Source of the DNA: Scytalidium lignicola
Lineage: Eukaryota; Ascomycota; Leotiomycetes
Reading direction: 5' to 3'
Length of the DNA stretch: 64,000 nt
NCBI GenBank assembly: GCA_002812745.2
Contig: NCSJ02000081.1
Span: 1 to 64,000, forward strand
In this document: in pieces, positions 27,821-60,095 of the stretch
Position numbering within the stretch: position 1 is the first letter of the stretch
Layout of the letters: every line of letters begins with the position of its first letter
Position numbers and translations under genes: made by a program
Notes under the pieces: model-generated
The model's input: only the letters and a program-made list of their open reading frames with translations
The model's database searches: none
Told to the model about the DNA's origin: nothing

Positions 27821-27835
27821 AAAACAATAAAAAAG

Positions 27836-30255: not shown

Positions 30256-32885
30256 ATGCGCTTGCTGAAGCGTTTATCGAACGGCGACTTAAAGCTGATT
30301 CCTTTCAACAATGACAACCTTCTATCATATGCCATCCTATTGCACACTTGGACTGAGGGTCAAGAAGTCATGTATAATGAGCTGGTTTCCGGTACAGGCA
30401 AAGACAAGACTAGGTATGCCAAAATCCGCTTCTGTGTAGACAGAGCTACCAAGGATAGGCTATAGTATTCCTGGGTGGATACCTGTTGCATTAACAAGTC
30501 TACGAGTGATGAACTTAGCATAACTATCAACTCAATGTTCTGCTGGTATCAGCGTACAAGCAAGTGCTATGTATACTTGTCTGATGTCCAGGTACTGGCG
30601 GAAGTTGTTGACACTCAAGCCTTCCTGATAACGTGAGTGGAAGCCTTTCGACAACACCGGTGGTTTACACAAGGCTAGACATTGCAAGAGCTTTTAACAC
30701 CGCCCACAGTTGAGTTCTTCTCCAAGGATAGCAAACTGCTAGGTAATAAAATATCATTAGAGCAGGAAATCCATCAGATCACCGAGATTCCTATCAGAGT
30801 TTTAAGAGGGCAGAGATTCTCTGATTTCACTATTGATGAGCGGATGAAGTAGGCAGCCAATTGTACAACAACGTTAAAAGAGGATAAAATATATTGTTTA
30901 CTAGGAATCTTCAAGGTATTCTTACCACTTATATATGGAGAAGGAGAAGAATATACGACTAGACAGCTGAGGAAGAAGATACATAAACGACAAGAAGGGC
31001 GAGGAACAGAAAGCCTTCAAGATCTGACAGGTATATCCTTGTTGAAACAGAGCAGTATTCCTCTTGCAAATCTTTATGTGGCTAATGAGGTCCAGTCCCT
31101 TCGCTATTACCTTTTCCGCGAAACAAGCTCTTCGTCGGACGAGAAGACAAGCTTCAATCTCTTGAACGGTTCCTCCTCCTTAACATTCACCGACGCATGA
31201 CAATATACGGTCTAGGAGGTTATGGAAAATCAGCACTCGCCCTTGAATTTGCATATTGCATGTTGACTCAATACACTAAACGTTTAATTTTCTGAGTACT
31301 TGTTATTAGCCAAGAGAGCTTTGAGCTTGCTTATCAGGAGATCAGAATACACCTTTGTATACAAGGAATTGCCAATGATAATGCAGACATCAAGTGGCTT
31401 GTTAAAGACGTATTGAACTCGAACAACATAGGTCGCTGGTTGATGATTGTTGACAATGTTGACGATCTTGGAGTTCTTATAGGGGGGAGTACTGGAGGTA
31501 ATCTAGGGTTAGCTCAACTTCGTGATTATCTCCTATATAATTCTCAAGGCAAAATCCTCTTTACTACATGAAACAAAAAAGTCGTCGAAGGTTTAACTCT
31601 GAGCAGTGTATTAGAGCTTGATGATATGAGTGAAGCTGAGGCTTAGCGACTACTGGAACAGTGAATATCGAAGCTAGCGTTGCTTTATAACCAAAAGGCT
31701 ATTAGCCAACTGTTAAAGGTACTTACTTATCTACTGCTTGTTATTGTGCAGGCAATTGCTTTTATGAACAATAATGACAGATCCATATCTGGGTATGTTT
31801 TATTGTTTCAAGAAGTAGGTATTACAACTAAGCTCTTCGGTAAGTATGTCAAAGACCTTAGTTGATATCAAGGGATGGAAAGTACGATTGTGAAAACATG
31901 GTATATCTTGTTTGATCAAATACAAAAGCAAGACCCACTTGCTGCAAAGTATCTCTTGTTTATAGTGTGCATCAATCACATCAACATTCCCCAGTCGCTG
32001 TTACCTCCTGGAGGCTCTGTAGTGCAGCAAGCTGAAGTAGTCAGGACGTTGAAAGGATATGCATTTGTTATGGAATACTAACAAGCCTTGTAAGAGTTAG
32101 AAAACGAGAAGTTCTTCGATATACACCGACTGGTCCACATGACGTTGGAATGGTGGTTGGACAGACGTGATGAACAGACGACTTGGACAGCCAAAACAAC
32201 AACATGACTTAAGGAGCTCATCCTATACGGCGGGCATGAGAGAAAGGAAGCATGGACAATATACCTCCTTTATGTAATCTATGTAGTTAGATCAGACGGC
32301 AGGCTGGATGAAATAGAAAGAGCTTTGCTTTTATATTGGATAAGGCTATGTCAAAGAAGCCTAGGACAATATTCAGTGGCAGAGAAGACGCTCTGACAAG
32401 CTCTTTCATTGTGAGNAAAAAGTGCTTGGGCCTAAGCATCTAGACATGCTGGCGAGCATGAATAACTTGGCACTTGTACTATATAGCCAAGGCAAGTACA
32501 AGGAGGCGGAATCTATACACTAGCAGACGTTGGCGTAAAGGGAGAAGGTGCTTGGGCCTGAGCATCTAGACATGCTGACGAGCATGAACAACTTGGCAAA
32601 TGCGCTATACAGCCAAGGCAAGTACAAGGAGGTGGAATTTATGTACTGGCAGACATTGGCGTAAAGGGAGAAGGTGCTTGGGCTTGAGCATCCAGACATG
32701 CTGACGAGCATGTACTGCCTTGCTCTCCTCCTTGCTACTTAGCAGCATTATGACGAATCTATTGTTCTGTATAAAAAGGCATGTGCTGAGTATAATATTG
32801 TTCTTGGAAAGGATTACTCAATTATACATATATGTTATAAACACTATTCTGACATGTTTGTATCACAAGAGTAAGAGTAAAGCTT
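30256..32885 (+). pseudogene. HET/NB-ARC/TPR incompatibility-type pseudogene, copy 1
   Basis: From ATG 30,256 (MRLLKRLSNGDLKLIPF) a HET domain is clear: SYAILLHTW, VDTCCINKST, INSMFCWYQRTSKCYVYLSD, WFTQG-stop-TLQELL (Trp to stop), CLLGIF and PLIYGEGEE. Near 31,110 KLFVGREDKLQSLERF leads to Walker A GLGGYGKS (31,209-31,232) and Walker B LMIVDNVDD. TPR repeats of 42 residues (126 bp) end the gene at 32,420-32,760. Many TAG/TGA replace CAG, TGG and CGA. HET domains trigger cell death on non-self recognition in the fungal cytoplasm (family knowledge). Here the gene is broken throughout. Confidence 0.85.
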
Positions 32886-33719
32886 ATTATATAGAATTAA
32901 GAATATCTTTATTTCTTAGAGGATCTTAGGGAACCATCTACTTATATACTATTTTAGAATTGTCATTTACCTTCTAGCATTTTCTAAAAAAATATAATAT
33001 TTAATGGATTTGTCATAAATCTATTAATCTTTTGTATAGACAATACAGGTCTTAATTACTAAGCCTTTGAATAGTTATATAAGAGAGTAAGTTCAAGAGT
33101 TGATATAGTATGAGATTATATTTCACAGAAGTAGCTAGTGTAAGTATATAAGCTGGTGTAAGACTATGGGCTTGTATTAAGCTGATAGATGATAACATCT
33201 TGATCATTATCATATGGGTAATTATAACTTTTTATTTTTCTTACATCTTATAAAGAATGTACAGTATATACAGTAGCATAAGTATTTGTGATTATGCATT
33301 ATGCTGTTTTAACCTTATTGATAGTCTTTATTTCCCTTCTCTTTTGTAGTAAAGTCTCCTTCTGACATTAGCCTGGAGATCAAGGTCTTTAGTTGTTTAT
33401 TAATGTTGATCTCTACCTTTAGAATCAGGAGAATAGTATTGTTTCCATTGGTGATCATTGCCTTGAAGTACTTTGTTAAAGTTAATATATTCAGTTTAGT
33501 ATCAAATAGCCTTAACNTTTTTCTTTATATACTTTATTATAACCTACTTAACTTTAGATGGATTAGAAGGATTTATATTAAGACTGTGTAAAGTTCTTTA
33601 AACATTATGTTCTCGAACTTTGAAAGTTATATAAATAGAATATAATATCTCTTAAGCTAGTAGAGTCTGGCTTTATAGAAGTAAGTGATGTTAGAGGATG
33701 ATGCAAGACTAATATATAC
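32886..33719. other. No recognised gene
   Basis: AT-rich spacer between the 3' end of the HET pseudogene and the 3' end of the DUF3723 pseudogene. Convergent orientation of these two genes. No motif seen. Confidence 0.4.
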
Positions 33720-36341
33720 TTATTGTTTGTTGGAATAATTGTTTGCTAGATTGTGAAGTTGATGGTTGTTTGCCTTAGCTTGTTGACCTTTTTGTGGTTG
33801 ATCTAAAAGAGAAGGATTACCTTGCTTGCTTGTAGTAGTATTAGATATAAGGCTCTTCATATTAATTTACGTATGATGTTTTCTAGGCTGTTCAGAATCT
33901 TTGAGTGTCTTCTCTTGTTCCTTTCTGCTTTGTTCTTGAGCTTCTTGCTGTTGCTTCTTCTCCTCTTGCTTTTCTTGTTCTTGTTTCTCTTGTTCTTGCT
34001 GACGTTGCTTCTCTTGGTCTGAGATTTCTTGTGCTTGTAAAGCTTATGTTAACCTTTCTTGCAAATCTTCTTACTCTAGCCTCTCCTTGATTCTCTTAAG
34101 CTCTAACCTCTCTTGCTCTTGTCTCTCTTGCTCTTGCCTCTCTTGATTTGCCCTCTCCTGCTCTAGTCTCTCCTGTTCCGCCCTCTCCTGCTCCAGTCTC
34201 TCCTGCTCTAGTCTTTCCTGCTCTAGTCTCTTCTGCTCTAGTCTCTCCTGCTCTAGTCTCTCCTGCTCTNAGTCTCTCCTGCTTTAGTCTCTCTTGCTCT
34301 AGTCTCTCCTGCTCTAGTCTCTCCTGCTCTAGTCTCTCCTGCTTTAGTCTCTCCTGCTTTAGTCTCTCCTGCTCTGGCATCTCCTCTTCTACCCTCTCCT
34401 GTTCTTGTCTTTCCTGCTCCTGGTTTTCTTGTTCTTGTTGTTCTTGTAGTGCTGATTGATCATGATCTGACTATTTTGTTTTATTTGTATTCAACTCTTG
34501 AGTAGAGAATCTGGTTCTTTGAGCATTGTGACATGGTGATTGTAGGTGATCAGAATTAGTATTTATACTGAAATCCGTTGGCTTATCAAAAAAAGCAAAG
34601 TATATAGATTAACGTATAAAGAATGATATGATCTCCTCACCTTACCCTTTACTCTCCTTGTGCATATGTGTGATGAATAGAAACTTGTTGTCTTGTTCTT
34701 AGGCATCTTTGTCTAGGAATTTACATTGATTTTTTGTTGTGTTAGGATTCTTGGAAACAAGAGCTGGACTTAAAGATTTAGGCAGGACTAAGACTGTTGT
34801 TGTAAATAGCTTTATGATTTGCGTTATATTAGTTTTAAAAATAGCATCTTCATATTGGTAGTAGTTAGGTTTTCAAGCTCTTAGGAGGGTGTTCTGTGTA
34901 ATCTTTTTATTTGGTGACTGTTGTATTAAATCATGGATTTGCTTTAACTTGAAGCTTAACTGGTTGGTAGAAGTAATGAAATCAAATAAAACCTCCTTGT
35001 CTGCTCTTCTTACCTTTACTTTTGTAAACAAGTCTTTTTTNCTTTTTCTTTGTGTCCGTTAGTATTTCTTGATAATATTGTATTGTATAAAGTTATAATT
35101 GCTGGTATAATAAATCGAAATGATCTGTTGTTTGTCTTGGTTTAGGCACAAAATTGCTCTTGGCAACCTTTATAATGTATTGGTCATTAGTCTGGTTTAT
35201 ATATAAGAAGTGGTGTTGTAAGGCTATTAAGACTGTGTTATGGTATGATATTTTCACTAGTCACTTTAGACAATCAGTGTAAGTACTGAAGTACTTGTAG
35301 TTCTCGAAGAAGGTATAGAGGGTAAGGAAAAGCTTGTCTAAGAATTGTAGCTTATCTTAAATTACCTTATGCTCTTGTTGGCTAAAGGCGTTAAAAATCT
35401 TCTTATTGAGCAGTTGCTCTTGTAAGTATTGTATATTACTCTTAGAGTACCTTGGAGCTTTTATTTCTAATGTTCTAATAGTAGTTTGGTTTACCTTTTA
35501 CAAGGTTGTCTTAGTTTGTATTAGTTGTAAAATAGCTTTTTTNAATCTACTGAAGATAATGGACATTGTGCTGCTTATAGTGTTAGTGAGGTTAAGAGGA
35601 TTAAGAAAAAGGATTGACCTTATAGTATTTATCTTTAATAATTTTATGTATAATGTTGAGTTGTATGTTATACCATATCTTAGGTATCTTTAACATGTCG
35701 TCAAATGTAGTAATAAGCTCCTTATAGTTGTTAAGTTGTTAAAGTCCTTTTTGTTTATAGTCGGAGAGGAAAGCCTTCTAGTAATTCTTGAAGTAAAAAT
35801 TACATTTGTGCTTATATTGGCGGATTTTGTAATAAATCTTTTTNATTAGACGGTTTCTTCTCATTGAAATATTCTTTAATTAATATTATTTTGAATATCA
35901 GGTTTGTATTTAGAGAAAAGTTAGGTAATGTTGTCTTGGAATTACTTTGAAGATTGTTATGCTTATAAGATATAGATTAATTGTCTACTATGCATTTATT
36001 GAAGGTAAGACTTCTTGAGTAGTCTAGATATGATGATGTTTATAGAGGTAGACTAAGTAGGAACTTGTAAGAAATCTTAGTTTAAGAGGGTTGTTGTTAG
36101 GATTACTTAGCAAAGTCTTTGTTGAAGTCTTAAAAGCTTGGATAACATCGTTAAGATTTGACTGTTTAACTATAATAAGAATATGATTTTTAAGCTTTAG
36201 TTTATAAATGTTATCTTTTTGAAATACTTCCTTTAATCTCTTGATATTCTTTTAATTGAGTTCTCTTGGTTTATTCTACTGAAAGTGCAAAATGTTAAGT
36301 CTTATACATATAATATCTTTATACTTAATATATCTTTTCAT
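33720..36341 (-). pseudogene. DUF3723-family pseudogene with coiled-coil tail
   Basis: N-terminal motifs on the minus strand are CIRLNILHFQ, then KLKLKNHIL, SSYLVYLYKHHHI (the LHGQHR region) and a TINLYL strand. The middle holds KIYYKIRQYK, a damaged 'W-AFLSDYKQKGL', and TLYTFFENYKYFSTY with LK-stop-LVKIS near 35,260-35,330. These fit DUF3723 in order. The C-terminus is a Gln/Glu/Arg coiled coil made of near-identical pentapeptides (LEQER) at about 34,060-34,400, then SNKQ-stop at 33,720. Length about 870 codons. Stops and N-marked homopolymers break it. DUF3723 genes are, from published Starship surveys as I recall them, frequent Starship cargo; biochemical role unknown. Confidence 0.75.
34060..34410. 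repeat. 15-bp tandem repeat encoding (LEQER)n
   Basis: About twenty units of approximately 'tctctcctgctctag' on the plus strand; on the minus strand they encode [15 protein letters not shown] pentapeptides. Units differ by single bases. One N interrupts the array at 34,270. It forms the coiled-coil part of the DUF3723 protein. Confidence 0.8.
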
Positions 36342-39300
36342 CTTGAAGTTTAACTTTTACTCAAGAAAATAAGATAAAGATATCTAGAAGATCTCTTCTA
36401 ACTTAACCAAGAGATTGTTATATCCTAGGACAAAGAAGGATAAGATACATATTATATAAAGAGAGAGGAAGATAAAGTGTAATAGTAGGTAGAACTATAA
36501 GCTTAAGGTAAGATGAGGGAGTTAAATTCTGCTGTCCTTCATCTTTTGTTGCTCTTTATCTTTTGTTTAGTCATAATCTTAAAATAACAGTCTTAACTTA
36601 TTTAAATCTTTTNACTAACTTTTATATTAGTAAAATACATAAACAACAATATCCTTTATACTTTTAAGTTAGTCTTTTGTTTAATTAACCTTCTCTCTTT
36701 TATATTCTTATTTTATATACTAACTAGCATTGATTTCGAACTTTTATCTTAAAATAAGTTTTTTTNGATAATTGTTTTACACAGATTGATATGTATGTAT
36801 TAATAGAGGCTAAATCGCCAACCTAGGTTGAGGAGTATGTTGTTATACTTGACTTGCCTGGTTATAACTTGACCTCCAAGGGTAATACCTTGAGCAAGAG
36901 AACCTTCTCTTTAGAAATTGCTTTTGATATCCTGATTAGGATAGGAAAGACATAATTGAGGATTGTTAGATTTATAACAATTAGTCTTCTTTAGCTTTAA
37001 ATGGCATAAGAATCACCTTAGAGGAAGTATGAAAAGATTTATGACATTGAACTTGGTAGCATTATGGAAGTAGTTGTTCAGAAGGCTCCTCTTGTTGAGC
37101 TTGTTTATATAAGAGCATTTTCGACTTAAGTAGCTGTAAAGGTATTGTATCTTTTTTGACAACTTTAGTATTAAACTATTATTGTTGCCTTTAAAGCTTT
37201 TATAATTGATAACGGTCTTTATATTATTTTTAAGCATATGTTAATCTTCTTTGAGTAAATCATAAGTTTGTTAACTTATCTTGATGAGTAATAATTTATA
37301 GTTATCCTTAGACAAGTAAGCTTTTTACAAGTTATTAAAGAAATATAGTATTGATCATAGTAGATTATGATTAGTGTAATTTATCTCATAAGAGAAAGAT
37401 TTGAATATAAAGCTTTGACTTCTTTAAATATCTTATTGAATATAAATGACAATGTTAAGATTAGTAAGTAAACTCTTTATATAAGTGATACTTGGTTTGA
37501 CTAAATTTTACAACAAATCAAGAATGTTGTTAAGTAATCTTATAATCAAGGACTAAGCCTTGTGATGTTAGAGCTCTTTTGTTCATTATAATGGAATTAA
37601 TATAAAAGTACATTAAGGAGGATAAGGTAATTAGTGTTGATAATATGCATTGTTAGTATTCAAGTTTAAATGCTCTTAAATTCTTTTTTATAATGACATT
37701 TACTGTTTTTACGGTGGAATTACTCAAGGTATATTACCTTTTCTTTTTCATGTTGTAGAAGACTTACATTGACCGTTGTAGCATTTGCTCTTAATATATA
37801 TATAGCAGAAAGAATTATTTATCAGTCTAATATCCTTAGCTTAAAATTGTATGTATGAGCATTATAAGTATATATTATAAGAGTAATTTTGAATAGTAAT
37901 GTGAAGTTGTACATATATATGTACAGTATGTATTTGAATTAAAAAAGTTTATTGTATTATATTTTTACTAAATTATAAAATTCTTATTATATGTTATCTT
38001 ATTCTATTTATTCTTATGTTGAACTTCTTCTTATTATAAATTTATATGAAGATTTAATAGTTAGAATCTTTGTGAAATGGTTTGTTGCTAAAACTTTAAC
38101 TTGGATTTTATCAACGTCATAAGTTCTGGTTAGTATACAGTTTATTTGGATGATTTGTACTTCTCTTTTATAACTTGCTTGTTGGAAGGAGTTGATTATG
38201 GCTATTGTTTTGTAAGAGGACTTTATTAAAAGACCTTTTCGTCTTATTTGAAATCCTTTATTATAAATAGTAGGTGTTTAATTCAGGCTCTTTCTAAATC
38301 TGAAGTATTTTTGTGCTCTTTAAGATTATAAGCAATATATTCTAGATGAAGACAACCCTTATATGTTTTTAAAGTAAACATAGTTAGAATTAGCCTTTAG
38401 CTATCTTGGTGTTTAATTTAAGCTCTCTTAATATTTTAAATATTATTACTTTAGGATTATTGATTATATATTTTGGATAGTAATTATCTTTAATATGTTG
38501 GAAATATAAGAGTAATTGTAAATAGTATAGTGTTTTAACGAAGAGTCATCTTTAAACTTTAATAAGCAAAGATATTCAGTATTTTGGTTGTAAGTTGATT
38601 GTTAGAAGTCTTTTTTTTATCTTCAGAGGTTCTTTTTTTTAACTTTATCTTTAAAAGTTTTTTNCTTATTGTTTTACTCTTAGAATTTGTCTTTTTTTTA
38701 CTTTTGTTTCTCTTTCCCTTCTATTTTCTTTCCTTTTTCCCTTGTTCTTCTTGAGATTTCTTCATTTTTGTTTTCTTCTTTATAATAATCTCTTTTTAAC
38801 TTTATAAACCTTTTTAATTCTTCTTCTTGTGCGTTTGTTATGGATGTTATTACAGGATATGTTATTATCATAGGCGGTGGCTTTACTCTCCTCTTGCTTA
38901 TCAATGGCCTTCCTTTGATCATTTACATGAGTAAATATTTTTGCCTTCTGATAATAAAACATTTAATCTACTGTTATGTCTTTTACTAGTATTAGTTCTT
39001 AGGTCTATGGAGTTGAGTTGATGTTTTAGTATAGCTGATTTATATTATAGGGAATATATGTTACTTCAAGTTTTAGGATACAACCATTGTATAAGCAAGA
39101 CTTTGAGTTAGGATACTTGTTGTGATCAACTTGATTCCTTTGTTCATGAGTCCTTACCTTAGTGCTTTTGTTGATCTACTAGGAATGACCCTTAGTATAT
39201 TTCAACAGATTTATCAGTTAGCAAGCATGATGATGGTTATACTTATTATTTTCTATCTCTTTGTTATGATATTCTCTTAATTATCTTTTCCTTTGCATTT

Positions 39301-41145: not shown

Positions 41146-41149
41146 ACTG

Positions 41150-42720
41150 GGAGGATTTAAAGGTTAATATATTTAAGCTTGTGTATAACTGGTTGTGTAA
41201 TAATAAGAGACAATGGATTCTTATTCTTGACAATATTGATGATGTTAGTTTTTTATTTATCTAGAATATTGATTTAGATTAGTTCTTGAAATTACTTTGA
41301 GATTTTTTGCCTTAAAGTAAGAATAAATTAGTTCTTATTACAATTAGAAGTAAAGATACAACTTTGAAGTTAGTAGAAGATGAGGAAACTATTCAGCTTT
41401 CTCTTATGGATAAGGTTGATATATTGGCTTTATTTTAAAAGAAATTAAAGAAAGGTTATAATGAAGATATTAATAAGCTTGTAATTATGCTTAAGTTCAT
41501 GTTACTTACTATTATACAAGTAGTAGTATATATCTCTTAGTAAGCACTATGTTGTTCAGTAAGACAATACCTTAAGTAGTTTTGCAAAANGTGATCAAGT
41601 TAAAACAAGTCTTTTAGATGTAGAAGTTAAACAACTTTGATAAGACTAAAAAGTTAAGAATTCTATTATCATTACTTGACATATATCATTTGAGTATATT
41701 TGCTAAACTAGAGTGTTAACAACTGAATTGTTATTGTTGATAAGTATGTTTGACTGACAAGGAATTCTTGAGGAAGTTATTCAAAATAGATTAAAACTTG
41801 AAGAACTTGAGCAAAATCAAGACAACTAAGAATTATATGATAAGATTGGTTATACTGATGGATTTGAGGATAACATACTTATGTTGAGAAACTATTCATT
41901 TATTTCTATTACTAGAGTACAGGAAAAACAAGATGAACAGGTTAAAAGGGATAAACAGGAGAAATGGTTTACATTTGAAATGCATAGGCTTGTACAACTG
42001 GCAATGAAGAAATGGCTCAAAATTAATGGCCAGCTAGAAAAATGGACTAGGTAATTTGTCCGAAGTCTTTGTGCAGAATTTCCAATGGGCAAATATGAAA
42101 ATTGGACAAAGTGCTAGATGCTCTTCTTACATGCAAAATTATCAGCAGAACAGAAACCTGAGTGTGAAGATATTTTGGAAGACTAGGCTTCATTGCAATA
42201 CAAAGTAGTGTGGTATGTACTCGAAAAAGGGAGTTTCGTTGATGCAGAGAAATTGGCAGTGCAATTAATGGAAACACAAAGAGAACTATTTGGGCTAAAG
42301 AATAAATATACTCTAAATAGTATGATAATAATAGGTCATGCATATAAGGATCAAGGATGATGGAATGATGCTGAAAAGTTGGACGTGCAAGTGATGGAGA
42401 CGAGTTTGAGAGTGCTAGGAGAAGAGTATCCCTCGACGCTGACCAGCATGGCCAACTTGGCATCAACATATAGGAACTAAGGATGATGGAATGAGGCAGA
42501 AAAGCTGGAGGTGNAAGNGATGGAGATGAGTTCGAGAGTGCTAGGAGAAGAGCATCCCTCAACGCTGACTAGCATAGCCAATCTAGTGTTCACTTGGAAG
42601 TCTTTGAGTTGTAATTATAAAGCCTTGAAACTAATAAGAGAGTACCTTCAATTACAACAGCAAAAGTTGAGTGAATACTATCTTGACATAGTTTCTTTGC
42701 AGGATACTATAAAAGAATAA
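41150..42720 (+). pseudogene. NB-ARC/TPR NLR-type pseudogene, copy 2
   Basis: Begins inside the NB-ARC at NIFKLVYNWLCNNKRQW, followed by ILILDNIDD (Walker B) and LVLITIRSKDTTLKLVEDEE. Then comes a helical region, with MGKYENWTKC and SAEQKPECEDILED, and TPR repeats ending KLSEYYLDIVSLQDTIKE. It is the inverted duplicate of 19,640-21,250 with the same residues almost throughout; N-terminus and Walker A are missing. Stops replace Gln/Arg/Trp codons. The duplicated block continues into repeat R1 at its 3' end, as in copy 1. Confidence 0.8.
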
Positions 42721-42811
42721 GAGTAAGGTAGGAGTTCTGTACTTGTGAGATTGGCAAGCATAGGAGCATGGCCATTTAGCAGTTAACAATGCTAAATTAA
42801 CATAAGCTATT

Positions 42812-43184
42812 ACCAATATTTTGTTATATAATTTATATTGTATTAAGAATAGAAGTTAAATTATTATATACTTTATATATTAAATGGATTTGAAAAAGAA
42901 TCATAAACGAAGGCATATTTAAGTAATTGCTTTAGCCATGTGTCAAAAGGAAAGCTTTGTCACATGACAATTATTTTATACTAATATCAGATAATGAATA
43001 AGTTTAGAGCTTTATTAATTGAGTAACAACATTATTTTATGCAATGTGCAGGTTGCAAGGGAGTAGTTGGTTATCTGGTGGCTGAAAGTTGTTTAACAGC
43101 ATTAGAGCTAACATGTTAAAAGTTATAGGACTAAACTAAAAACATGAAGTTTGAGATGGGAAGCCAAATTTGCAACTTACCAGT
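42812..43184 (+). repeat. Dispersed repeat R1, copy B
   Basis: Inverse orientation to 19,201-19,571, ending 'tttgcaacttaccagta'. Together with the adjoining NB-ARC/TPR copy it is part of a roughly 2-kb inverted duplication. Confidence 0.65.
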
Positions 43185-43450
43185 AGGCTGTACAATCAGC
43201 TTCTTAAGAATTCAATGTTTTTCATTTTGTCCCGTAACTTTTGGCACCCTAACTAATACGTTTATGGCTAGTCTCATCAGTAGTCAGATAAGCGATTCAT
43301 CGCCGCTATGAACATTCCGATACAAAACGGCGGCTTTATTGCCTTAGGGATTGAACTGATATTGCTGACAAAGCCTTGGCATTACCTGATATCGGGGTAG
43401 TTTTACCTGGTTACCCCACTACTGAATTGCTGCCTGAGGAATAATAAATT
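43185..43450 (+). repeat. Dispersed repeat R2, copy A
   Basis: Starts 'taggctgtacaatcagcttc' immediately after R1 and contains 'gcgattcatcgccgc' and 'attgctgacaaagcc'. An inverted relative lies at 47,093-47,309. It shares the phrase 'aatgttttt...gt(c/a)ac-ttttggca' with R1, so R1 and R2 are probably related families. Confidence 0.6.
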
Positions 43451-43807
43451 CATAACAGCCACCGGTCGCACAATCTGCTTTTCTGACTTGTGTCATCCAC
43501 CTTAAAATTTTTATCTCAGGTTCGCTGCCTTTTAAAAGTGTATGATTGTCTTTCTACTTTTTGGCTCAGATCTTATACTGTATGCAGTCACGGCCTTAAA
43601 TCAACTCATGGTTTAATCGCGCATCTAGAATGGGTTAGCCTGCTTGCAGTAATGTTGGTCAACACCGACCACCATGGTCGCAAGGCTGTGGTTCAGCTGG
43701 ATCCAACTTCATTGCCAGCGACACAACTTGCTTCGTATGGATCCTAATTCGATGACTTTATTCGCTGAGAACTCTCAGGCTTATTGTCTTTCAAATAAAT
43801 TCGAATC
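43451..43807. promoter_or_regulatory. 5' flank of HET gene copy 2
   Basis: Balanced composition. An open frame at 43,490-43,747 has no similarity I recognise. The phrase 'ctggatccaacttcattgcc' (about 43,700) resembles a part of the 53.7-kb divergent region. It lies just upstream of the HET start codon at 43,808, so a promoter is likely. Confidence 0.35.
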
Positions 43808-46720: not shown

Positions 46721-46724
46721 GTAC

Positions 46725-47092
46725 AAGCTTCTTAAAAAACTTGGTTTTAAGTAGTTGGACAGACTACAAGACTTTGCATGAATATATTCTTGATAATATT
46801 TTTTTATTCTCTATGATATAGAGGGTTAAGGGGAATGTATACCTTTATAGTGAACTATAATTGCTGTTGAAACTCTAGAACATTCCCTCCTGTGGTTGTC
46901 ATAACGAGGATACAATGACCACCTTGAACAGTTATAACAATAGCAAACTGTTCTCTAGTATAGTATATAGTACTTACGTACATAATGTACCCTATATAAA
47001 ATCATACAGCTGTATCATAGTAGGATATATCTACATTATAGCCAATATTCGTGAATTCAGTCGTTGTTAGTAGAGAGGTGAAGTGATGAGCT
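46725..47092. other. Intergenic, no gene seen
   Basis: 3' flank of the HET gene. A phrase 'tatagagggttaaggggaatgt' recurs as 'catagagggttcaaggggagtgt' at 56,844, also directly downstream of an NLR-type gene, so a short shared 3' flank is present. Confidence 0.45.
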
Positions 47093-47309
47093 AGACACTG
47101 ATACTGGGGAATGTTAAGCCTTTGTCAGCAGTATTGGCCTAATTACTGAGGCAAAAGCAAAGCCCTTTATTTTTTTTGTGATTGGCATGTTCAAAGCGGC
47201 GATGATTCGCTAATCTGTGCTAACCATAAACGTATTAGTTAAAGTGCTAAAAGTTATAGGACAAATCGAAAAACATTGAATTTTTGGGAAGCTGATTGTG
47301 CGGCCTACT
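47093..47309 (-). repeat. Dispersed repeat R2, copy B
   Basis: Inverted relative to 43,185-43,450, ending 'gctgattgtgcggccta'. Directly followed by R1 copy C. Confidence 0.6.
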
Positions 47310-48350: not shown

Positions 48351-50879
48351 TCAATGAGGACATTGTGCCTCAAGCTCGCGGAGACTAGGATACTGCTTGG
48401 TGCGAGTGCGCCATTCCTCGTCCTGCCGATCTTTATATGCTTGCAGCTCCGTACCAGTCAGGTCCTTCTCCAGCCAGTACACATCGTAGAAGATCACGCG
48501 AGTCGCCTTTGATGCAACATCTTCTAGCACAGTGTGATCCTTGACACTGAAGCAACCATCTTGGCCCCACTTCCGTCCCCACGAGTTGAGGAATGTGAGT
48601 GAGCCAGGACTGCAACTTTTTAAGACAACAGCATGCCTTCCACTGTCGGAATCGCTGTCGGAATCGTAGTCGCAATCGCTGCTGTCCTCATCACCGTTGT
48701 CCTCGTTGCTGCTGTTCTCATCATCGCTGTCCTCGTTGTTACTGTCCTCATCATCGCTGTCCTGATTATCGCTGTCCTGATTATCGCTGTCCTCATCATC
48801 GCTGTCCTCATCATCGCTGTCCTCATCATCGCTGTCCTCATCATCGCTGTCCTGATTATCACTGTCCTTGTCGTCGCTGTCCTTGTCGTCGCTATCCCTG
48901 TCACATGGCCGGTATTGCGCCATCTTATCACGTGTAAGCAGTGGATCATAAGTCTCAGCCTTTTTGTAACGCTTGACCTTTTTGAAGTGCTTTTCGAATG
49001 CGTACCAGCCTTTGCCTGAGAGATAGAATGTTGTCAACACAGGACGCCGGCGTAGCACCGCCTCACGTGCTCCTACTTCATCAGTTTTACAGAATTGGAG
49101 TGGACGATACCATGAGATTGCCTTCTTCAGGACCTTCTCATCGGTGAATCCATGTCCAGGCGGAAACTTCTTCAGGATCCTTGTCCGGATTTTTTTGATT
49201 CTCGGACAACCTCCTTCACGCCCTTCAATGCGAAGAAGTGCAAGATGAAGAGCTGCAGCAATTGCATGCGCATAGCAAGTCTTCGATTGGCCTTGGTTTG
49301 AAGGCTTCCTGCAGGTACGTACCTGCTTATCATTGATGTATCTGTCGAATGCGACGTCCATCAATGCATCTGCCAAACCAAAACGCGCAGAAAGTAACAG
49401 CGAGCAGAACTGGTCGAGTATAGCAGCACTCGACACCGCAGTATATAAGTTGCACTCACCGATTGGGGGTATCTCCCAACCCACTGAAGCAAGCACAGGT
49501 ATTGGATGCGTATGACAAGAAACAGTAGAAGCCATACCAAAGAGTGTGCGCTGACCTTCACTCCAGTTATCTGCAGCTTCGTAATAGAGGCAGCGGTGGT
49601 AGCGTGGAATTTCTCCATCGCTGGTGAGATATACTGTTGCTATTGTGATGCCTTTCTTCCGTAACTCACAAGCAAGTGGCAGTGGGTCGCCATCAGTTGA
49701 GAAACCGTCCGATACAAGTATAAGAACACGGCGCTCCTCCTTCTGTTCCTCCTTCTGCTCCTCCTTCTGCTCCTCCTTCTGCTCCTCCTTCTCCTCCTCC
49801 TCCTCCTTCTTCTCCTCCTCTTTCTTGAGTACGAGGCGCTTGCAAAACACATCCTGTGACTTGCTTAGAACTTCTCGCATTGGAGTCTTGCCGTACATAT
49901 AAGGACGCAGGGTGTCAAGCAATTTATGAGTCCCTCGCTCTTCTTCGCTCCTATTGTCACTAGCTTCTGGGTAATGTTGCAATCGCTGAAGCAAGTCAAT
50001 AACTTCGTGAACTGGACGTGGCTCAAAGTTGACGTAATCCTGCCACCACTTCTCGCACATGCTTCGCGCGACATTTAAAGCCTCTGAGTTCTCTACTATG
50101 TGGTCCTCAATGACAGGCACATATGCTTCAATCATGTTGCCAACGGTTTTGCCTGCGGTTTGGCCGATGGCTTGGCCAACGGCTTGGCCAACAGATTGAC
50201 GAACAAATTTGCCAGCAAAGCTAAATATTCCCGCCTCCATACCGCTCTCTCCAGTCACTTCCCCTGCGATATTCTTAGTCACACCCTCTGCAATTGTCTT
50301 AGCCACTTTCTCTGCTGTGATCTCCTGAAAATTCATCTGGTCCGCAGGTGGGATGTGCTTGAGAAATTCGGCTGTGCTCTCTGGGTGCTGGTTTAGGTAC
50401 GCGTGGAGAATACGTGCCTCAGCATCACTGAGCTTGGTTCGGATATACTTTTCGACATGCTTTTGTTTGTTCTTATTAGCTAATGAGATAAGAAGTTCAT
50501 GGCCAGTCTGGTGATTGTCATCGTCATGAAAGAGCGCCTTAACGATACCGCATAGATCTACCGTTGGAGGGCATTTAGTATCGTCAGTGTTCAATCCAAA
50601 CACGCCCACGAACACGCGAGCAAGGCTATCGCGACGTTGCTCTGCCTGAGCAAGCTTGAGCACCGCCCGGAGAACAGCATGGAGACGCTCGCCCACATGT
50701 TCCTCATCCTGGCGACCCGACTGTAAAGCCTCGCGCATAGAACCGGATACATCGAGGAGGCAGCCAACAACCGCTGTGGGGGACTGGTCAGGCATCGCGA
50801 GCAGAGGATCAAGACGAGCGGCATAGACAACATAGAAGGATTTAAGGGTGCTGGTATGGGAGCGGGAATAGACCTTCAA
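48351..50879 (-). CDS. vWA domain plus papain-like cysteine protease, intact
   Basis: An uninterrupted 842-codon frame. A von Willebrand A fold starts with the MIDAS motif DVSGSM (residues 43-48) and resumes near 385-397 with VLILVSDGFSTDGD. Between them lies a long insertion with amphipathic GQAVGQAIGQTAGKTVG (231-247) and a Lys/Glu repeat tract (353-383). The C-terminal half is C1A papain-like: Gln529 and Cys535 (NQGQSKTC), His749 (GRHAVVL) and Asn765 (LNSWG). The Q-C spacing of 6 and H-N spacing of 16 equal papain's, so the tetrad looks complete. An Asp/Ser-rich repeat (about 661-747) sits between Cys and His. The start is 50,879 or the second Met at 50,795. No signal peptide is evident, so it is probably cytoplasmic. 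No introns needed. Substrate unknown. Confidence 0.85.
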   Translation of the reverse strand: MKVYSRSHTSTLKSFYVVYAARLDPLLAMPDQSPTAVVGCLLDVSGSMREALQSGRQDEEHVGERLHAVLRAVLKLAQAEQRRDSLARVFVGVFGLNTDDTKCPPTVDLCGIVKALFHDDDNHQTGHELLISLANKNKQKHVEKYIRTKLSDAEARILHAYLNQHPESTAEFLKHIPPADQMNFQEITAEKVAKTIAEGVTKNIAGEVTGESGMEAGIFSFAGKFVRQSVGQAVGQAIGQTAGKTVGNMIEAYVPVIEDHIVENSEALNVARSMCEKWWQDYVNFEPRPVHEVIDLLQRLQHYPEASDNRSEEERGTHKLLDTLRPYMYGKTPMREVLSKSQDVFCKRLVLKKEEEKKEEEEEKEEQKEEQKEEQKEEQKEERRVLILVSDGFSTDGDPLPLACELRKKGITIATVYLTSDGEIPRYHRCLYYEAADNWSEGQRTLFGMASTVSCHTHPIPVLASVGWEIPPIGECNLYTAVSSAAILDQFCSLLLSARFGLADALMDVAFDRYINDKQVRTCRKPSNQGQSKTCYAHAIAAALHLALLRIEGREGGCPRIKKIRTRILKKFPPGHGFTDEKVLKKAISWYRPLQFCKTDEVGAREAVLRRRPVLTTFYLSGKGWYAFEKHFKKVKRYKKAETYDPLLTRDKMAQYRPCDRDSDDKDSDDKDSDNQDSDDEDSDDEDSDDEDSDDEDSDNQDSDNQDSDDEDSNNEDSDDENSSNEDNGDEDSSDCDYDSDSDSDSGRHAVVLKSCSPGSLTFLNSWGRKWGQDGCFSVKDHTVLEDVASKATRVIFYDVYWLEKDLTGTELQAYKDRQDEEWRTRTKQYPSLRELEAQCPH
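48640..48905. repeat. 15-bp tandem repeat coding for Asp/Ser-rich linker
   Basis: Units of about 'gctgtcctcatcatc' on the plus strand, encoding DSDDE/DSDNQ on the minus strand. It lies inside the protease domain of the vWA/protease gene. Variants change D, N, K and Q. Confidence 0.8.
49735..49825. repeat. 12-bp tandem repeat coding for Lys/Glu tract
   Basis: 'ctcctccttctg' repeated about five times and shading into a CTC/CTT run; it encodes (KEEQ)n then KKEEE on the minus strand in the vWA/protease protein. Confidence 0.8.
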
Positions 50880-51269
50880 TTTTCAGACAATAATCCATTC
50901 TTTTTCGAGACTTGTTCGATCGTTTGAAGACTGTTACCTTCCTCGCCTTACGGTTGCCAAACGTGGGTGCTAGCATCGTGGCGATCGTTTATTGGAAGTC
51001 TGGCAACGACGCGTTGGATTCGATTTTTATAACAACTATTGAATTCTAAGCAATGTCGACACATGGCTTTGCACAGAAATTAAAATTGAAATCGCTGCCA
51101 CCCAGTGATTCAAGAAAACTCACCGTACGTTGAAGGACCACGACAGTAAACAAGGCAGAAGGGTGCGTAAAAGAGAAGGGTTGTTTCATTTGACGTTCGT
51201 TCTTGTTGGCCGCTCAGCAATATTATTTTCCCTCTAAAAATAACAGTCAATAAAATGATTCGGCCAAGG
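50880..51269. promoter_or_regulatory. 5' flank of vWA/protease gene
   Basis: Balanced composition without open frames of note. Likely holds the promoter of the minus-strand gene; no distinct TATA or operator-like motif was identified. Confidence 0.35.
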
Positions 51270-52037
51270 AGGGAAAAGGCACAGTGAATTGGATACCACC
51301 ATTAGGGTCACGTGGCATACCCCACAGCACTCCAGAACATGCAACGTGTCCTTTTTGTCGGCAAAACGTTGACGGAAAATGTTATCGATGCCTCTTAAAG
51401 GCAATCCGATATATTAGAATGGCGCCGAATCTCCCAAAGGTGCAGCATGCAGAAATTAATGATCTGCTACAGAGTAAGTTATTTACAAGTGAAGAGATAG
51501 CTAAAGCAAATCATTGTAGCAGACGCTCCGTCACTAGAATAAAGAAAAACCTCCGTTGCTAAGCGTAAAATAGGATGGATGTTTTGGGGTTGTATAAGTG
51601 GTTTATACGGCAAAGGTTCAGGAATATTCTGGGAAAAAGAATGGAAAACAATTACTGCAGAATCATATACAGAGCATATTGTTTCAGCTGTTTCCGAGTA
51701 CATGCAGAATCATCCTTTTCTCGAATTTCAGCAAGATGGTGGACCTGGCCATACAGCAAAGTATACGCTTGAAGCTTTTGCAGATAAAGGGATTATGCCT
51801 GTTTTTTGGCCTCCATATTCGCCAGATTTATCGCCAATTGAGACAATATGGAATAGAATGAAGGATATATTGGAGGAATTGGATCCTGAAACTCACAGAA
51901 ATTATTTAAGGCTCAGAAGTGTAGTTTCGAGCTCCTGGGACTCCGTTACCGATGCAGAAATCAGGGATATTATTCATACAATGCCACAGCGTTGTAAAGA
52001 TGTAATTGAAGCTAAAGGAGCGTATACAAAGTGGTAG
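51270..52037 (+). mobile_element. Tc1/mariner-like element, internally deleted
   Basis: The HTH part (51,419-51,562: LQSKLFTSEEIAKANHCSRR, then SVTRIKKNLRC) is followed directly by the DDE domain's second half (51,579-52,037). That half holds GWMFWGCISGLYG, FQQDGGPGHTA (second Asp), YSPDLSPIETIWNRMKD (catalytic Glu) and the end GAYTKW. The first catalytic Asp and about 130-170 codons are missing at a junction near 51,560. A possible 5' terminus begins 'acagtgaattggatacc' at 51,281; no mirrored 3' terminus was found. Non-autonomous. Confidence 0.8.
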
Positions 52038-52954
52038 AAATACTAGTAAAGCAGCGTTGCAAAAGGTGGTGTGCTGAAGGTGGCAAGGGGTCTGTGCATT
52101 AACAATTAAAAGGGCCTGTACGTAGTAGTTCGACAATGATGATCCTATGGAGCTTCTGGGGCCATTCTGGACAGTTCCAATCCACAGTACTCAAATATAG
52201 ATAGCGTTGAGTGAGTATTAGTACGTAGATAAGGGAAGGCCCAGAAAAGCCTAACAAATTCAGAGACACTGAACAGGTTTCAAAACTATGCGTAGAGAAA
52301 GTTTCATTCGTCAATTAAGAAGGAAATAAACCCGGCGAGGATTTGCTTAATTTCTGAAAACGAGTAGAGGCTATCATAATTACTGGCGTGCAGAGAACAG
52401 CTGGACTACATACATATAGAATATAGAATGGAAAGAGAAAAAGGGTTTGAATTTGATTGATTGCGAAGCCTGGTAGAAGGCTGAGCTCATGATATCATCC
52501 GAGAAGTCATCCGCGATAATTGGGAAATTGTGGGGATCGTAGTCAAAAGATTACCTCGGATAATCAAAAGGGTAGGTTATCACATGTCATTTTTATTTTC
52601 CCACTAGCAAGAACCAATCACATTTTTAGTTGCCTCGACATCGCGTGAAGGCGACGACACATTCTATTGGCCAATCTCGGCTCCGAGTTCCCTCACCATG
52701 AGCTCGGATGTTTATTATGCACGTGATCAATTTGCTGCTACTGTTTCTGCCACTTATTCACACGGGGAAAACGACTCATATTATCATCCGTATCCGAATC
52801 CACATATCTTTCATTCGTATCCTATCCGGAGTGGTGTTTGGGAGGTTTCTTATACTTAGCTTTCATATCATGTGGGAGCAAGCTTACTGGTATGGGATAC
52901 GACAATTGCTACTTCACAGTTAATAAAATCCCTTTTCCAGAACTACAAGTGGTG
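52038..52954. other. 3' flank of Tc1-like element and MADS intron/exon region
   Basis: 52,040-52,600 holds no recognised gene. 52,600-52,954 lies downstream of the MADS exon 1 donor and should contain the intron and later exons of that gene on the minus strand, but no exon could be picked with confidence. Confidence 0.35.
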
Positions 52955-52960
52955 ACTTAC

Positions 52961-53161
52961 GATTTGCTCTTTAGACGGCGGCCAAGGCTCAAGATCAACA
53001 GAATTGTAAGTGAAATAACGACCACTCTTGCGACTACGGATAATAAGTGCTACGTCAGCTTCGCAAAACTCTGCAAGCTCATGAGCCTTCTTGATCAAGG
53101 TGTTCTTCCTTCTGTTTAGCCTTTCGCTTCTTCTTTTGGGAGGGGCGATAGCCATAATCAA
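52961..53161 (-). CDS. MADS-box transcription factor, first exon
   Basis: From ATG 53,161 (or Met3 at 53,155) the exon encodes PPKRRSERLNRRKNTLIKKA, then HELAEFCEADVALIIRSRKS and a GRYFTYNSVD strand. That is a nearly complete MADS box: basic helix, KKA-HEL turn, and the hydrophobic beta strand. It ends at SKEQI with a GTAAGT donor at 52,955-52,960, also conserved in the copy at 27.8 kb. The short box without a long SRF/MEF2 extension fits a fungal-specific MADS-like family I recall. Exon 1 has no stop or frameshift, so it may be functional; the rest of the gene is not resolved. Nuclear DNA binding expected. Confidence 0.7.
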
Positions 53162-56600: not shown

Positions 56601-57087
56601 TAATACATGCTCTACTTGTGTCAAATAATTGGATAACAGAAGATGGCACAAATATTCTTTGGCTGCCTCTTGACTATCGACTAAGTCGAATAGCTGTTTG
56701 GAACGAAATTCTTGCTTTAGGATGCACATCAAGGAAAATTTATATTCTTGGATTTCAGAAAGGATCGAAATTTATTTAATTTAGATTAGTCTAGTAATTA
56801 TCATTGACTATATAATATCTTTTTCTTTTTNATCTCTATTTCATAGAGGGTTCAAGGGGAGTGTGTGACTTTATAGTGGTTAATAGTTGTTACTCAGTTT
56901 CTAGAATCTTCTAGAATACTCTTTATGTGATATGACAAGACGATGGTAAGCTTGTATGTTGTGGGTATTAAAGTTAGTCACTAAACATACAGCCGACACC
57001 ATGACAAGATCCTTTTCTAGTGAAAAGATAAAACCTTCATTTACAAGAAAACTATTTTTTCCTTGAGCTACAAATAGTATGACCATG

Positions 57088-59552
57088 TCATGAGACTATT
57101 CCATGGATTCTTAATGCATGATTCTGGAAATGCATCTTATGCTCAAGGGTTATTCGACAGATTTTGCACTCGCTTGGGCCTTTTTTNATAGTTAGATAAA
57201 TGTCTTCACTTGAAGTGCTTAGTCAAATCTCCTGAAGTATAGAACTCATGAACAAGTTCTTCGATACAAAGGTTATCTGGTGGCAAAGACATTACTATTC
57301 TGACACAGATGAAGTATCTTCGAGGTCTCTCCTTCTGATTTTTGACGAAAAGGGACATTATAGCAGTATGTAATAAGCTCTTAAGGGGCAGGTCCAGGCT
57401 GGAAGAGACATGTGGTTGTTGTGTTAATCCTGAGGACTTTAGAGGCATAGTGCATCCTTCCTCTACTGTGCAGTACGATATAATAGCGTCAATAGCCTTA
57501 TCCCTCTGTTGGTACTGCCTCTTGAGGTCGGTGGCGGCTGAGGCCTTGAGCGCCTCCATCAATTGCTTCTGCGCTGGCCGTTGAGGACGACATGACATAT
57601 TTGGTGTGAGCTTGGCAAACCCAAGGCTGTTGAGTTGACGCTTGATATCCTTTATGGCTTACTCGGCTGTCCAATTGTCTTTGATCTGCTGCTTGAGCTC
57701 TCTCCGCAATCGTTGCCTTTCATTTTTCCGTATTCAGTATATCGCTCTGTATTCTTTAAATCCTTTGCGCAGTTTCCGGAGTTCTAGGGTCAGGCGTTGA
57801 ATCATCAGATTGGTGTTAACAGATGCAGACTGCTCAGGTGTCAGATTAATAGGCTGACGTTTGCTAATGGAATGGCCGACGTTGTAAGACTGTTTCACGA
57901 GTGCATGTTGTAGCTTTGTTCCCCTTAGGATGTTAAAGAGATCTTTGTCTATATTATGTCCAAGATAATGCTTTTGGAGTAGTACCAAGTTGGCATGGTC
58001 TATCGTAAGATTCTGAAGAGCTTTACTTACATCGACTGCATTGGCCTAGGTTAGCTTAGCATTATACTTAGAGAGGGAGATACAAACCGTTTGAAGTCTA
58101 CTTGTTAGCAGCATTGTAGTATAAATTGTAAGGGATAGTTGGAATCTCTAATCCTAGTATCTTACTGATCCTTCTGATTTATGCTGTCATCATTGCATAG
58201 GATATAGGCTTGTTATCGGATATATCAAGGCCTGTGAGTGTCTGGACTGCTTGCTGGAATACATAAACGTCTTTCAAATCCTGCTTTAGTGGCAATTGCA
58301 TCTCAAGCTTGCTGGGGTGGATATTGAGTGTCTTCAATTGTTGTGGTGAAGTAAGGTTAGGTGTGTAGAATGCTCTATGGCGGAATAAGATGCTTAGGAG
58401 GAAGATGTACAAACTCAAGAGCAAGGACTTGGCAAATAACGTCTTAAGAAGGGGATAAGTTTTCCTGTGAAGATGTTAATAATCAACTTTTGTTGTAGAT
58501 GTTAAGGTGTACATACACATCCTTCTTGTCAAGATATATTTTGGTGAATGTAAGTATAAACTTGATTAGAATATTATGTGGTCTGCCTTTTGGATCTTGT
58601 ATTAGTACAGTCAAGATATCTTTGAATTGTAGTTGTAATATTGATGTTGGACGAGTACTAGCTAGGGTAAGTAAGAGAAGGAAGAGTATAACAAGGATTT
58701 GTAATTCCTTAAGCTTGAATGACTTCTTCGTTGTGCTTAGCGTAGTCTTGATTTGCTGTTTAAGATTGTTGATTATTATACAGTGATTAGCCCTTCTTTA
58801 GTTACTTAGCTTATACTTCTTTGCTAGTACTCTAAGAACTTATAAAAGCCAGAGATTAGTAAGGGTTCTTGCTTTAGTGCTAGAATAAAGAAGATACTTT
58901 ATGTATGCTATGATTTAGTTTAGGATTTAACTTGTCACTTGTAACTCTCTTATAAACGAGCTAAAAAACCTTTTAAAGTGTACTTAATAAGCTTTTCTTC
59001 TTAATCTTGTATAACTTCTTGTTATCTTTATTAAGTCTTTGATTCAGCCTTTAATCAAAAAATCCTTGAAGAAGGTTAGTTAAAAACTTAAAATGTTCTG
59101 CCTTTAAAATAAAAAGTAACTTGATGCTTTCTTAAGAGAGTATAAGTAACTTGAAATATTCTTCAGGATTTTGATCAACAACAAGGTAGTATCTGTAAGT
59201 AAATATCATCAACAAACAAACAAGCAAGTAAACAAAGAAAGCAATCGTAAGCTTCTTACAAGTGTTATTGTTCCTCCACTACATCCAAGAGTAAGTTAGT
59301 CCTTGAACAGTAATCCTTGGAATTAAAAGTAATCTTGTTGAAATTCTTCAATACTTGCCAGTAATACTCTGGAAGGTAAATGTTCCTAGCAAAGAGTTGG
59401 ATCTAATCTTCAACGTTAATCTCAAGGTTATTGTTGTCGTCAGTGTCAGGATCTTCGACGCTTGTAGGTTTGCTTTCCAAATCACTTTAGAGCTCATTGA
59501 TATTGAATATTATATTACTCTTTGATAATGACAAAGTGTCTGATTTGTCCAT
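57088..59552 (-). pseudogene. DUF3435 tyrosine-recombinase-like (captain superfamily) pseudogene
   Basis: Start ATG 59,552 (MDKSDTLSLSKSNI). N-terminal motifs: IYLPEYYWQVLKNFN, LLLDVVEEQ, NPEEYFKLL. The catalytic region carries KKSFKLKELQILVI, LASTRPTSILQLQF (first Arg kept), LFRHRAFY, DLKDVYVFQQAVQTLTG, then PYNLYYNAAN where the second catalytic Arg has become Tyr. QKHYLGHN keeps the presumed nucleophile Tyr. ISKRQPINLTPEQSAS, CRPQRPAQKQ and a C-terminal C2H2 finger (CKICRITLEHKMHFQNHALR) end at a TGA at 57,088. About 820 codons, with at least one dozen stops and several frame changes. Members of DUF3435 integrate and excise Starship elements; only some are true captains. Confidence 0.8.
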
Positions 59553-60095
59553 ATCATCTGATTTGGCTAAAATCTGCTGATGTCATAACATGCTAATGGT
59601 AGAAGTATAAATAGTGTAAAGAGATGTGATAAGAAGTAACTGCTAGAAGGATCGTGTTGAGGGAGGAGAAAAGAGATAGAGCAAGAAGAGGTAATTTGAG
59701 TTTGAAAGGTTTGGAGAGAAAATGGAGGAGAGGAGATGGAGGAAAGAAGGCGGGAGAAGGTAGGCAAAGAGATAAGACAGCCGTCATCTTAAGTTAGCGA
59801 AAGATGGAGGGCATCCATTTTCTGCTCCTTGAAAAGGCTCCTCGCAAAGTAAGAACGAGAATAAAGAGAAACGCTTTTTGGGTTATGCTCGCAAGCTCGC
59901 TTTAGTCTTTTTTTAGCGGTCCCTGCCAAGTGCTTAACAAGGCTTTGACAAGGGTGGATGAGGCTGTAAAGCCACAGCGCTTTAGTCGAAGGAGAAGTGA
60001 GCTGCTAAAAGCAACGTGAGATTCTGGCAAGTAGGCTACTGAAAACAGCGACCAAAACCCCTCAAAACAACAGCCAAATTGCTGTCTCATTATTT
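59553..60095. promoter_or_regulatory. 5' flank of the DUF3435 gene
   Basis: On the minus strand a TATA-like 'ctatttatac' lies at 59,603-59,613, about 50 bp from the start codon, and CT-rich tracts at 59,650-59,790 resemble fungal promoters. Composition is balanced up to about 60,090, then turns AT-rich at once. If the gene is a captain, the element's 5' edge should fall in this interval. No short direct repeat was identified. Confidence 0.4.

What the first reader, a model, noticed from the sequence alone, without database searches (positions are those of the whole stretch)
30256..60095. Probable relic of a Starship-like giant transposon
A DUF3435 gene (57,088-59,552) transcribes leftward from a composition step, and on its downstream side lie a DUF3723 gene, two HET/NB-ARC/TPR genes, an NB-ARC/TPR gene, a NACHT/WD40 gene and MADS genes. 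A Myb/SANT-like gene occurs further left. DUF3435 is the Starship captain superfamily; DUF3723 and NLR genes are recurrent cargo (recalled from the literature). Sequence shows the genes; the single-element reading is inference.
Basis: partly seen in the sequence, partly recalled or inferred. Interest (0 to 1): 0.85.

Follow-up and report, generated by a model that had tools for sequence, protein, structure and literature searches.

The report
Decayed giant fungal transposon, five-prime end
This stretch of a mould genome holds the worn-out front end of a giant gene-carrying transposon (a Starship), with its dead recombinase gene and pieces of cargo that also follow sister copies of that recombinase elsewhere in the genome; the far end of the element was not found.

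Summary
The listed genes are present, except the Myb/SANT gene, which was not found in the stretches scanned. The genome is almost certainly Scytalidium lignicola (Leotiomycetes). The DUF3435 gene (57,088-59,591, minus) is a dead copy of a Cre-like tyrosine recombinase: 13 in-frame stops in six aligned pieces, one conserved Arg lost. A transposon end lies about 0.5 kb upstream: eight places share sequence starting at window ~60,093-60,102, with unrelated flanks. A sister copy (C331) has no stop in its aligned exons. Some cargo recurs at other sites: a kinase-like gene (36,767-37,749) follows this terminus in C577 and, weakly, the captain in C488; DUF3723 (34,588-36,203) follows the captain in C488. 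Within 35 kb of 16 captain loci, MADS and DUF3723 genes lie downstream (5 and 2) and none upstream. This supports a derelict Starship covering at least 34.6-60.1 kb. The left (3') end, target-site repeat and empty site were not found; the 30.3-kb boundary is unsupported. At least one NLR seems to have come in its own inverted-repeat element. The captain nests among Sordariomycete homologues, suggesting horizontal transfer. A new, decayed member of a known kind.

The parts
60008..60098 (-). 5' terminus of the element; conserved core at 60,034-60,069; the edge to unrelated AT-rich DNA is at about 60,093-60,102
   Evidence: blastn homology to C331 stops at 60,098; 8 genome matches, the query itself included, to the terminal 106 bp of the C331 copy; mean pairwise identity of 8 copies 0.24-0.35 outside and 0.53-0.91 inside
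57088..59591 (-). captain relic: DUF3435 tyrosine recombinase pseudogene with C-terminal C2H2-type region
   Evidence: PF11917 pieces in 3 frames; tblastn of Xylogone homologue P0001: 6 pieces, 13 in-frame stops (one may be intronic), Arg429 changed to Tyr, His453 and Tyr463 kept; Cre-like fold for P0001
54188..56776 (+). NACHT (NPHP3_N)/WD40 NLR relic, first gene found after the captain
   Evidence: stops inside
52946..53155 (-). mini-MADS (SRF-type) gene, about 70 aa open exon
51543..52034 (+). DDE_3 (Tc1/pogo-type) transposase fragment, a secondary transposon insertion
48354..50882 (-). 843-residue open frame, no Pfam family above its cut-off (weak VWA, 21.7 against 23.8 bits)
43182..47309 (+). 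inverted-repeat-bounded unit holding a HET/TPR NLR relic; probably a separate DNA transposon nested here
   Evidence: (arms 43,182-43,271 and 47,220-47,309, 86% complementary)
41149..43180 (+). TPR-type NLR relic, 84% identical to a second copy at 19,205-21,223 (minus)
36741..38304 (+). kinase-like cargo gene relic (36,767-37,749) and flank, shared with C577 and, more weakly, C488; antisense to the captain
   Evidence: DNA 65% over 1,593 columns to C577:119,533-121,071; tblastn 39-49% to C577; genome search with the C577 piece: itself, this locus (E 2.5e-24) and two weak matches
34588..36203 (-). DUF3723 relic, same strand as the captain
   Evidence: PF12520; second captain-linked copy C488:86,914-88,104 (+)
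30328..32697 (+). HET/TPR NLR relic; membership in the element unproven
27831..28076 (+). second mini-MADS gene; membership in the element unproven
60103..61000 (.). AT-rich flank outside the element (17% GC, RIP-like dinucleotide bias)

Best explanation
The window holds the 5' part of a derelict Starship, a giant tyrosine-recombinase transposon. Its right edge is at about 60,093-60,102. The dead captain is the first gene inside, transcribed inward, and the element runs left at least to DUF3723 at 34.6 kb (about 25.5 kb or more). When the captain was alive it presumably bound the conserved terminus, cut the element out with its tyrosine nucleophile and re-inserted it elsewhere, together with a kinase-like gene, DUF3723, a mini-MADS gene and possibly NLRs. 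Since landing, the copy has been inactivated by mutation, mostly C:G to T:A, and broken up by other transposons. Shown: the terminus, the dead captain, a Cre-like fold predicted for its Xylogone homologue, the shared cargo and the one-sided placement of cargo. Inferred: past mobility as one unit, the cut-and-paste mechanism (from the literature on other captains), and the existence and place of the missing 3' end.
Against: No 3' end, target-site duplication or terminal inverted repeat was found in the window or C331. The DNA homology block around the window captain is only about 3.1 kb against C331 and 2.7 kb against C488. The gene that follows the captain in C331 and, inverted, in C488 is not in the window. 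The kinase match to C488 is weak and was not listed by the genome-wide search, and one C488 block is inverted relative to C577. One NLR lies upstream of a terminus without a detected captain (C129). The draft is from 200-bp Ion Torrent reads (PMC6256649), so long-range order through repeats may be wrong.
Confidence: 0.72

Rival explanations
1. A solo DUF3435 recombinase or Crypton-like element of about 3.1 kb (57.0-60.1 kb) that moved alone; the genes to its left are unrelated residents of a repeat-rich island.
For: DNA homology to C331 and C488 ends about 90-120 bp after the gene. No 3' end was found further left. Solo DUF3435 genes are common and not separable from captains by phylogeny (PMC12134995, passages). 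One Starship study dropped elements under 15 kb as captain-only indels (PMC12153272, passages).
Against: The kinase-like gene follows the same terminus in C577, in the same relative orientation, 12-13 kb in. Within 35 kb of 16 captain loci, DUF3723 and MADS genes lie only downstream.
Confidence: 0.18
2. A RIP-worn repeat island where captains, NLRs, MADS and DUF3723 relics gather because selection is weak there, with no single element behind them.
For: RIP-like bias is positive at 1-10, 34-42 and 60-64 kb. The window has a copia RT, a Tc1/pogo fragment, a weak gypsy-type gag (21.8 against 24.1 bits) and, by eye, a LINE. One NLR has its own inverted-repeat unit.
Against: A passive island predicts no side bias, but 7 MADS/DUF3723 genes lie downstream and 0 upstream of captains.
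Confidence: 0.07
3. Assembly artefact: short reads collapsed repeated captains, NLRs and transposons into a chimeric contig.
For: Ion Torrent 200-bp library assembled with MIRA (PMC6256649, whole text); 42 N in the window and many diverged repeats.
Against: Captain-to-kinase order is the same in two separate contigs, and those copies are 27-35% diverged, which short reads should separate.
Confidence: 0.03

Closest known systems
Starship superfamily (captain-mobilised giant elements of Pezizomycotina)
   Same: DUF3435 tyrosine recombinase as first gene at the 5' end, pointing inward; DUF3723 and NLR genes nearby (both named as Starship cargo in PMC12134995)
   Different: captain dead here, 3' end and direct repeats not found; MADS genes were not found mentioned with Starships in the searches made; kinase cargo was not searched in the literature
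Phoenix-family Starship Janus of Aspergillus fumigatus
   Same: predicted target A(N3)TTACTA(N2)A(N15)CT (PMC12153272 Table 1); the C331 and C577 copies have TTACTA(N2)ATAAAC at the edge of the terminus
   Different: the window copy lacks TTACTA at that place; the resemblance is a lead, captain family not assigned
Crypton elements
   Same: tyrosine-recombinase DNA transposons first found in fungi (PMC12134995)
   Different: very distantly related recombinase domain (PMC12134995); cargo is shared between copies here
Cre / Xer tyrosine recombinases
   Same: predicted fold of the catalytic part
   Different: 11-18% sequence identity; the captain adds N- and C-terminal regions including a C2H2-type tail

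Membership tests
Starship | DUF3435 tyrosine recombinase (captain) | tested here: met
   PF11917 over cut-off; predicted Cre-like fold of the Xylogone homologue P0001; the window copy is a pseudogene
Starship | captain is the first gene at the 5' end, transcribed inward | tested here: met
   terminus at ~60,093-60,102, captain start homologous to ~59,591 on the minus strand
Starship | same element family at different genomic sites | tested here: met
   8 copies of the terminus with unrelated flanks; cargo shared with C577 and C488
Starship | large size with cargo (15 kb or more) | tested here: inconclusive
   shared cargo 22-25 kb from the terminus, but no 3' end
Starship | flanking short direct repeats at both ends | tested here: inconclusive
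   3' end not located, so no pair could be compared; no copy of the 20-nt terminus in inverted orientation within 4 mismatches in the window or C331
Starship | empty site or presence/absence in related isolates | not testable with these tools
   only the window's own genome is held (G000 has no relatives)
Starship | recurrent auxiliary genes (DUF3723, NLR, patatin-like, ferric reductase) | tested here: inconclusive
   DUF3723 linked to captains at 2 of 5 loci; NLR present but one is in its own inverted-repeat unit; patatin-like and ferric reductase genes did not appear in the stretches scanned, which are not all of the window
Starship | captain assigned to a named captain family | not testable with these tools
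   no reference captains available; the tree has homologues only
Crypton-like or solo DUF3435 element | recombinase gene moves without cargo | tested here: inconclusive
   the ~3 kb homology block with C331/C488 fits; shared cargo with C577 speaks against

The most novel reading that the evidence does not exclude
An undescribed Starship lineage in Scytalidium/Xylogone (Leotiomycetes), acquired horizontally from Sordariomycetes. It has a conserved ~100-bp 5' terminus whose core is shared even with some divergent captains, and a recurring cargo module: a kinase-like gene antisense to the captain beside DUF3723, plus a mobile mini-MADS regulator. At least one copy (C331) has a captain with no stop in its aligned exons.
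Probability: 0.35. Interest if true: 0.62.

Novelty: new member of a known kind. Interest (0 to 1): 0.48.

Why it matters
Starship detection usually relies on comparing occupied and empty sites between isolates. Here one genome holds diverged copies of one family, and these define the 5' terminus and hint at conserved cargo. If the mini-MADS and kinase-like genes prove to be recurrent cargo, they add a transcription factor and a kinase to the genes that travel with captains. The nesting of the captain among Sordariomycete relatives gives a concrete, testable case of transfer between classes.

Tried and rejected
Left end: a search for an inverted copy of the 20-nt terminus found nothing with fewer than 5 mismatches in C331 or 6 in the window. 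Direct repeats of the TTACTA-type site in C331 gave a few short matches that I judged to be chance; no expectation was computed. DNA comparison of 20-57 kb with the whole genome showed no shared left edge.

Target motif: the TTACTA site is present at C331 and C577 but not in the window, so no target was assigned.

RIP as sole cause: window changes against the agreement of two sister copies are mostly C:G to T:A (203 of 344), but not mainly CpA; the C488 copy is CpA-rich (83 of 158 C>T). So RIP is clear for C488 and the AT-rich tracts and mixed for the window captain.

I first read the C331 captain as broken (my reading). Alignment to its Xylogone homologue shows that the four stops in that reading fall in two stretches absent from the homologue, likely introns, so I withdrew that.

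A C554 match to the kinase-like piece (22%, E 7e-4) was judged too weak to count. The C331 gene called F-box/LRR-like in my notes had no Pfam hit; only the C577 one has a sub-threshold F-box (21.6 against 24.3 bits).

Foldseek and VIA-align cover mainly model residues 85-561; residues 1-67 and 458-465, which include Tyr463, have low confidence.

Papers: PMC12153272, PMC12134995 and PMC13373834 seen as passages; PMC6256649 read whole; PMC11162782, PMC9156397 and PMC13004909 were not held. Starship + captain + MADS gave 0 papers of the held library. No paper listed held both Scytalidium lignicola and Starship (8 of 183 listed, papers with more of the terms first).

Full report
Where it is. The window is contig C644:1-64,000 of a 46.85-Mb, 664-contig assembly. 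A mini-MADS hit is annotated as Scytalidium lignicola B7463_g7278 on a contig of 106,525 bp, which is exactly the length of contig C46, and its first residues agree with the C46 reading. The Pol I subunit RPA2 (identified) is 95% identical to Xylogone sp. PMI_703, 78-89% to the other named Leotiomycetes and 77-79% to nearly all named Sordariomycetes among the 120 rows listed of 2,797 (class assignments recalled). The published S. lignicola draft is 47.7 Mb in 826 contigs from 200-bp Ion Torrent reads (PMC6256649, read whole). The counts differ somewhat from the assembly held here, and homopolymer errors and repeat mis-joins must be kept in mind.

The 5' end. Homology between the window and C331 continues upstream of the gene and stops at window 60,098, at the composition step. 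The first 106 bp of the C331 copy match 8 places, itself included. DUF3435 follows in C331, C644, C554 and C77. In C577 the family's captain N-terminus follows, interrupted by what reads as a DDE-type transposon and cut off by a LINE-like element (by eye from open frames). C129, C29 and C634 have no detected DUF3435. Mean pairwise identity of the 8 copies is 0.24-0.35 outside and 0.53-0.91 inside, up to about 55 nt past the core, with the step at 35-45 nt before the core, that is window ~60,093-60,102. The core also appears with 6-8 mismatches of 26, on the right strand and 0.8-1.8 kb upstream, at three more distant captains (C75, C284, C361). Eight shuffles per locus gave best values of 10, 9 and 9 mismatches, so C361 (8) is marginal. 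At 8 of the 14 captain loci scanned (L008-L011, L013, L014, L016, L017) the best match was no better than shuffles.

Cargo. Window 36,741-38,304 matches C577:119,533-121,071 at 65% over 1,593 columns, in the same orientation relative to the terminus. It encodes a kinase-like protein (Pkinase E 1.7e-4, 21.5 bits against a cut-off of 31.7, for one C577 piece; no Pfam hit for the window frames). A genome search with the 109-aa C577 piece gave four matches: itself, this locus (E 2.5e-24) and two weak ones (E 0.002 and 0.0098). C488 has a weaker relative at 85,249-85,952 (42% over 57 aa, E 8e-10 against the fetched loci), which the genome search did not list. In C488 and the window DUF3723 lies next to it, on the captain's strand, about 30 and 22 kb downstream of the captain. 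C488 also shares an F-box-like block with C577, inverted and split by a copia element. C534 carries segments matching window 40.2-38.8 and 35.0-34.6 kb in that order, with no DUF3435 detected on the contig.

Side bias. For 16 captain loci and 35 kb on each side (425,503 bp downstream, 441,895 bp upstream), 5 of the genome's 16 MADS loci and 2 of its 5 DUF3723 loci lie downstream and none upstream. Leaving out this window, 3 of 14 and 1 of 4 remain downstream, none upstream. These families were looked at because the window had them, and repeat-rich DNA is not uniform, so the Poisson values (4.8e-7 and 0.001; 2.4e-4 and 0.033 without the window) are optimistic. NACHT-type NLRs show 3 downstream and 0 upstream (hand-merged), but one lies upstream of the terminus in C129 that has no detected captain.

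Not everything here is cargo. The HET/TPR gene at 43.9-46.7 kb lies between inverted repeats at 43,182-43,386 and 47,107-47,309 (74% over 214 columns). Similar inverted arms enclose NLR-like pieces at C80:5,398-7,964 and C488:61,292-71,278, and a 136-bp probe from this repeat has 16 matches in the genome, itself included. A fourth candidate, C22, did not show such arms around its NLR piece in the 3.6 kb fetched. So some NLRs probably arrived in smaller DNA transposons. The gene at 30.3-32.7 kb has its best matches on C437, C198 and C130, where no DUF3435 was detected. A copia fragment, a Tc1/pogo fragment and, by eye, a LINE (14.6-19.1 kb) add to the debris.

Origin of the captain family. Among 71 homologues the only Leotiomycete named is Xylogone (2 rows, 84-85%); the other named rows are Sordariomycetes or Geoglossum (class assignments recalled), and four rows carry no organism. 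In a 26-row tree (23 of the 71 homologues plus three own copies) the Scytalidium and Xylogone copies are sister to Apiospora (100/99) within an Apiospora+Colletotrichum clade (97/98); the genome's own C46 and C75 captains are distant. This fits horizontal transfer into this lineage. The Scytalidium row is a C-terminal piece (42% of columns), and the word-based search can miss distant relatives.

Decay. The composite RIP index is positive at 1-10, 34-42 and 60-64 kb and weakly so at 24-26, 54-56 and 58-60 kb, mixed over the captain, and negative in every step of C331.

Verdict. A derelict Starship with a well-placed 5' end, a dead captain and cargo support to 34.6 kb; left end unknown. The claim that it works like a Starship is well supported. 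Formal membership lacks the 3' end, the direct repeats and an empty site.

Noticed in passing
window 43182-47309; also C80:5398-7964 (L032), C488:61292-71278: NLR (HET/TPR) relics sit between inverted terminal repeats of one repeat family (16 genome matches to a 136-bp probe, itself included), as if NLR genes had been carried by a small DNA transposon family. C22, also fetched, did not show the arms around its NLR piece.
   Followed up: partly
window 52946-53155 and 27831-28076; C331:31104; C46:13439; C488:75458; C244:219407: A short MADS-box protein family, multi-copy here, with 74 relatives in the protein search (lengths 52-151 aa; 67 of 74 at 72-89% identity); the named hits are Leotiomycetes. 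The C244 copy lies next to DUF3723 on a contig without a detected captain.
   Followed up: partly
L004 2948-5888 (contig C331): A sister captain with no stop in its aligned exons, a conserved 5' terminus abutted by a copia element, and downstream ADH, GH20, epimerase, MADS and AAA genes; possibly a younger element.
   Followed up: partly
L015 7339-7364, L012 3039-3064, L005 6235-6260: The 5' terminal core recurs weakly upstream of divergent DUF3435 genes on the right strand, suggesting a terminus motif shared across captain subfamilies.
   Followed up: partly
window 48354-50882 (-): A long open frame of 843 residues in a field of pseudogenes, with no Pfam family above cut-off, in DNA of 48-50% GC.
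   Followed up: no
C534:8871-10847: Two segments colinear with window 40.2-38.8 and 35.0-34.6 kb (DUF3723) with no DUF3435 detected on the contig; possibly a captain-less relic of the same cargo.
   Followed up: no
window 7425-8547: An AT-rich block 80% identical to C46 (L010 8639-9756) and, in part, 70% to C284 (L012), both captain contigs; nature unknown.
   Followed up: no
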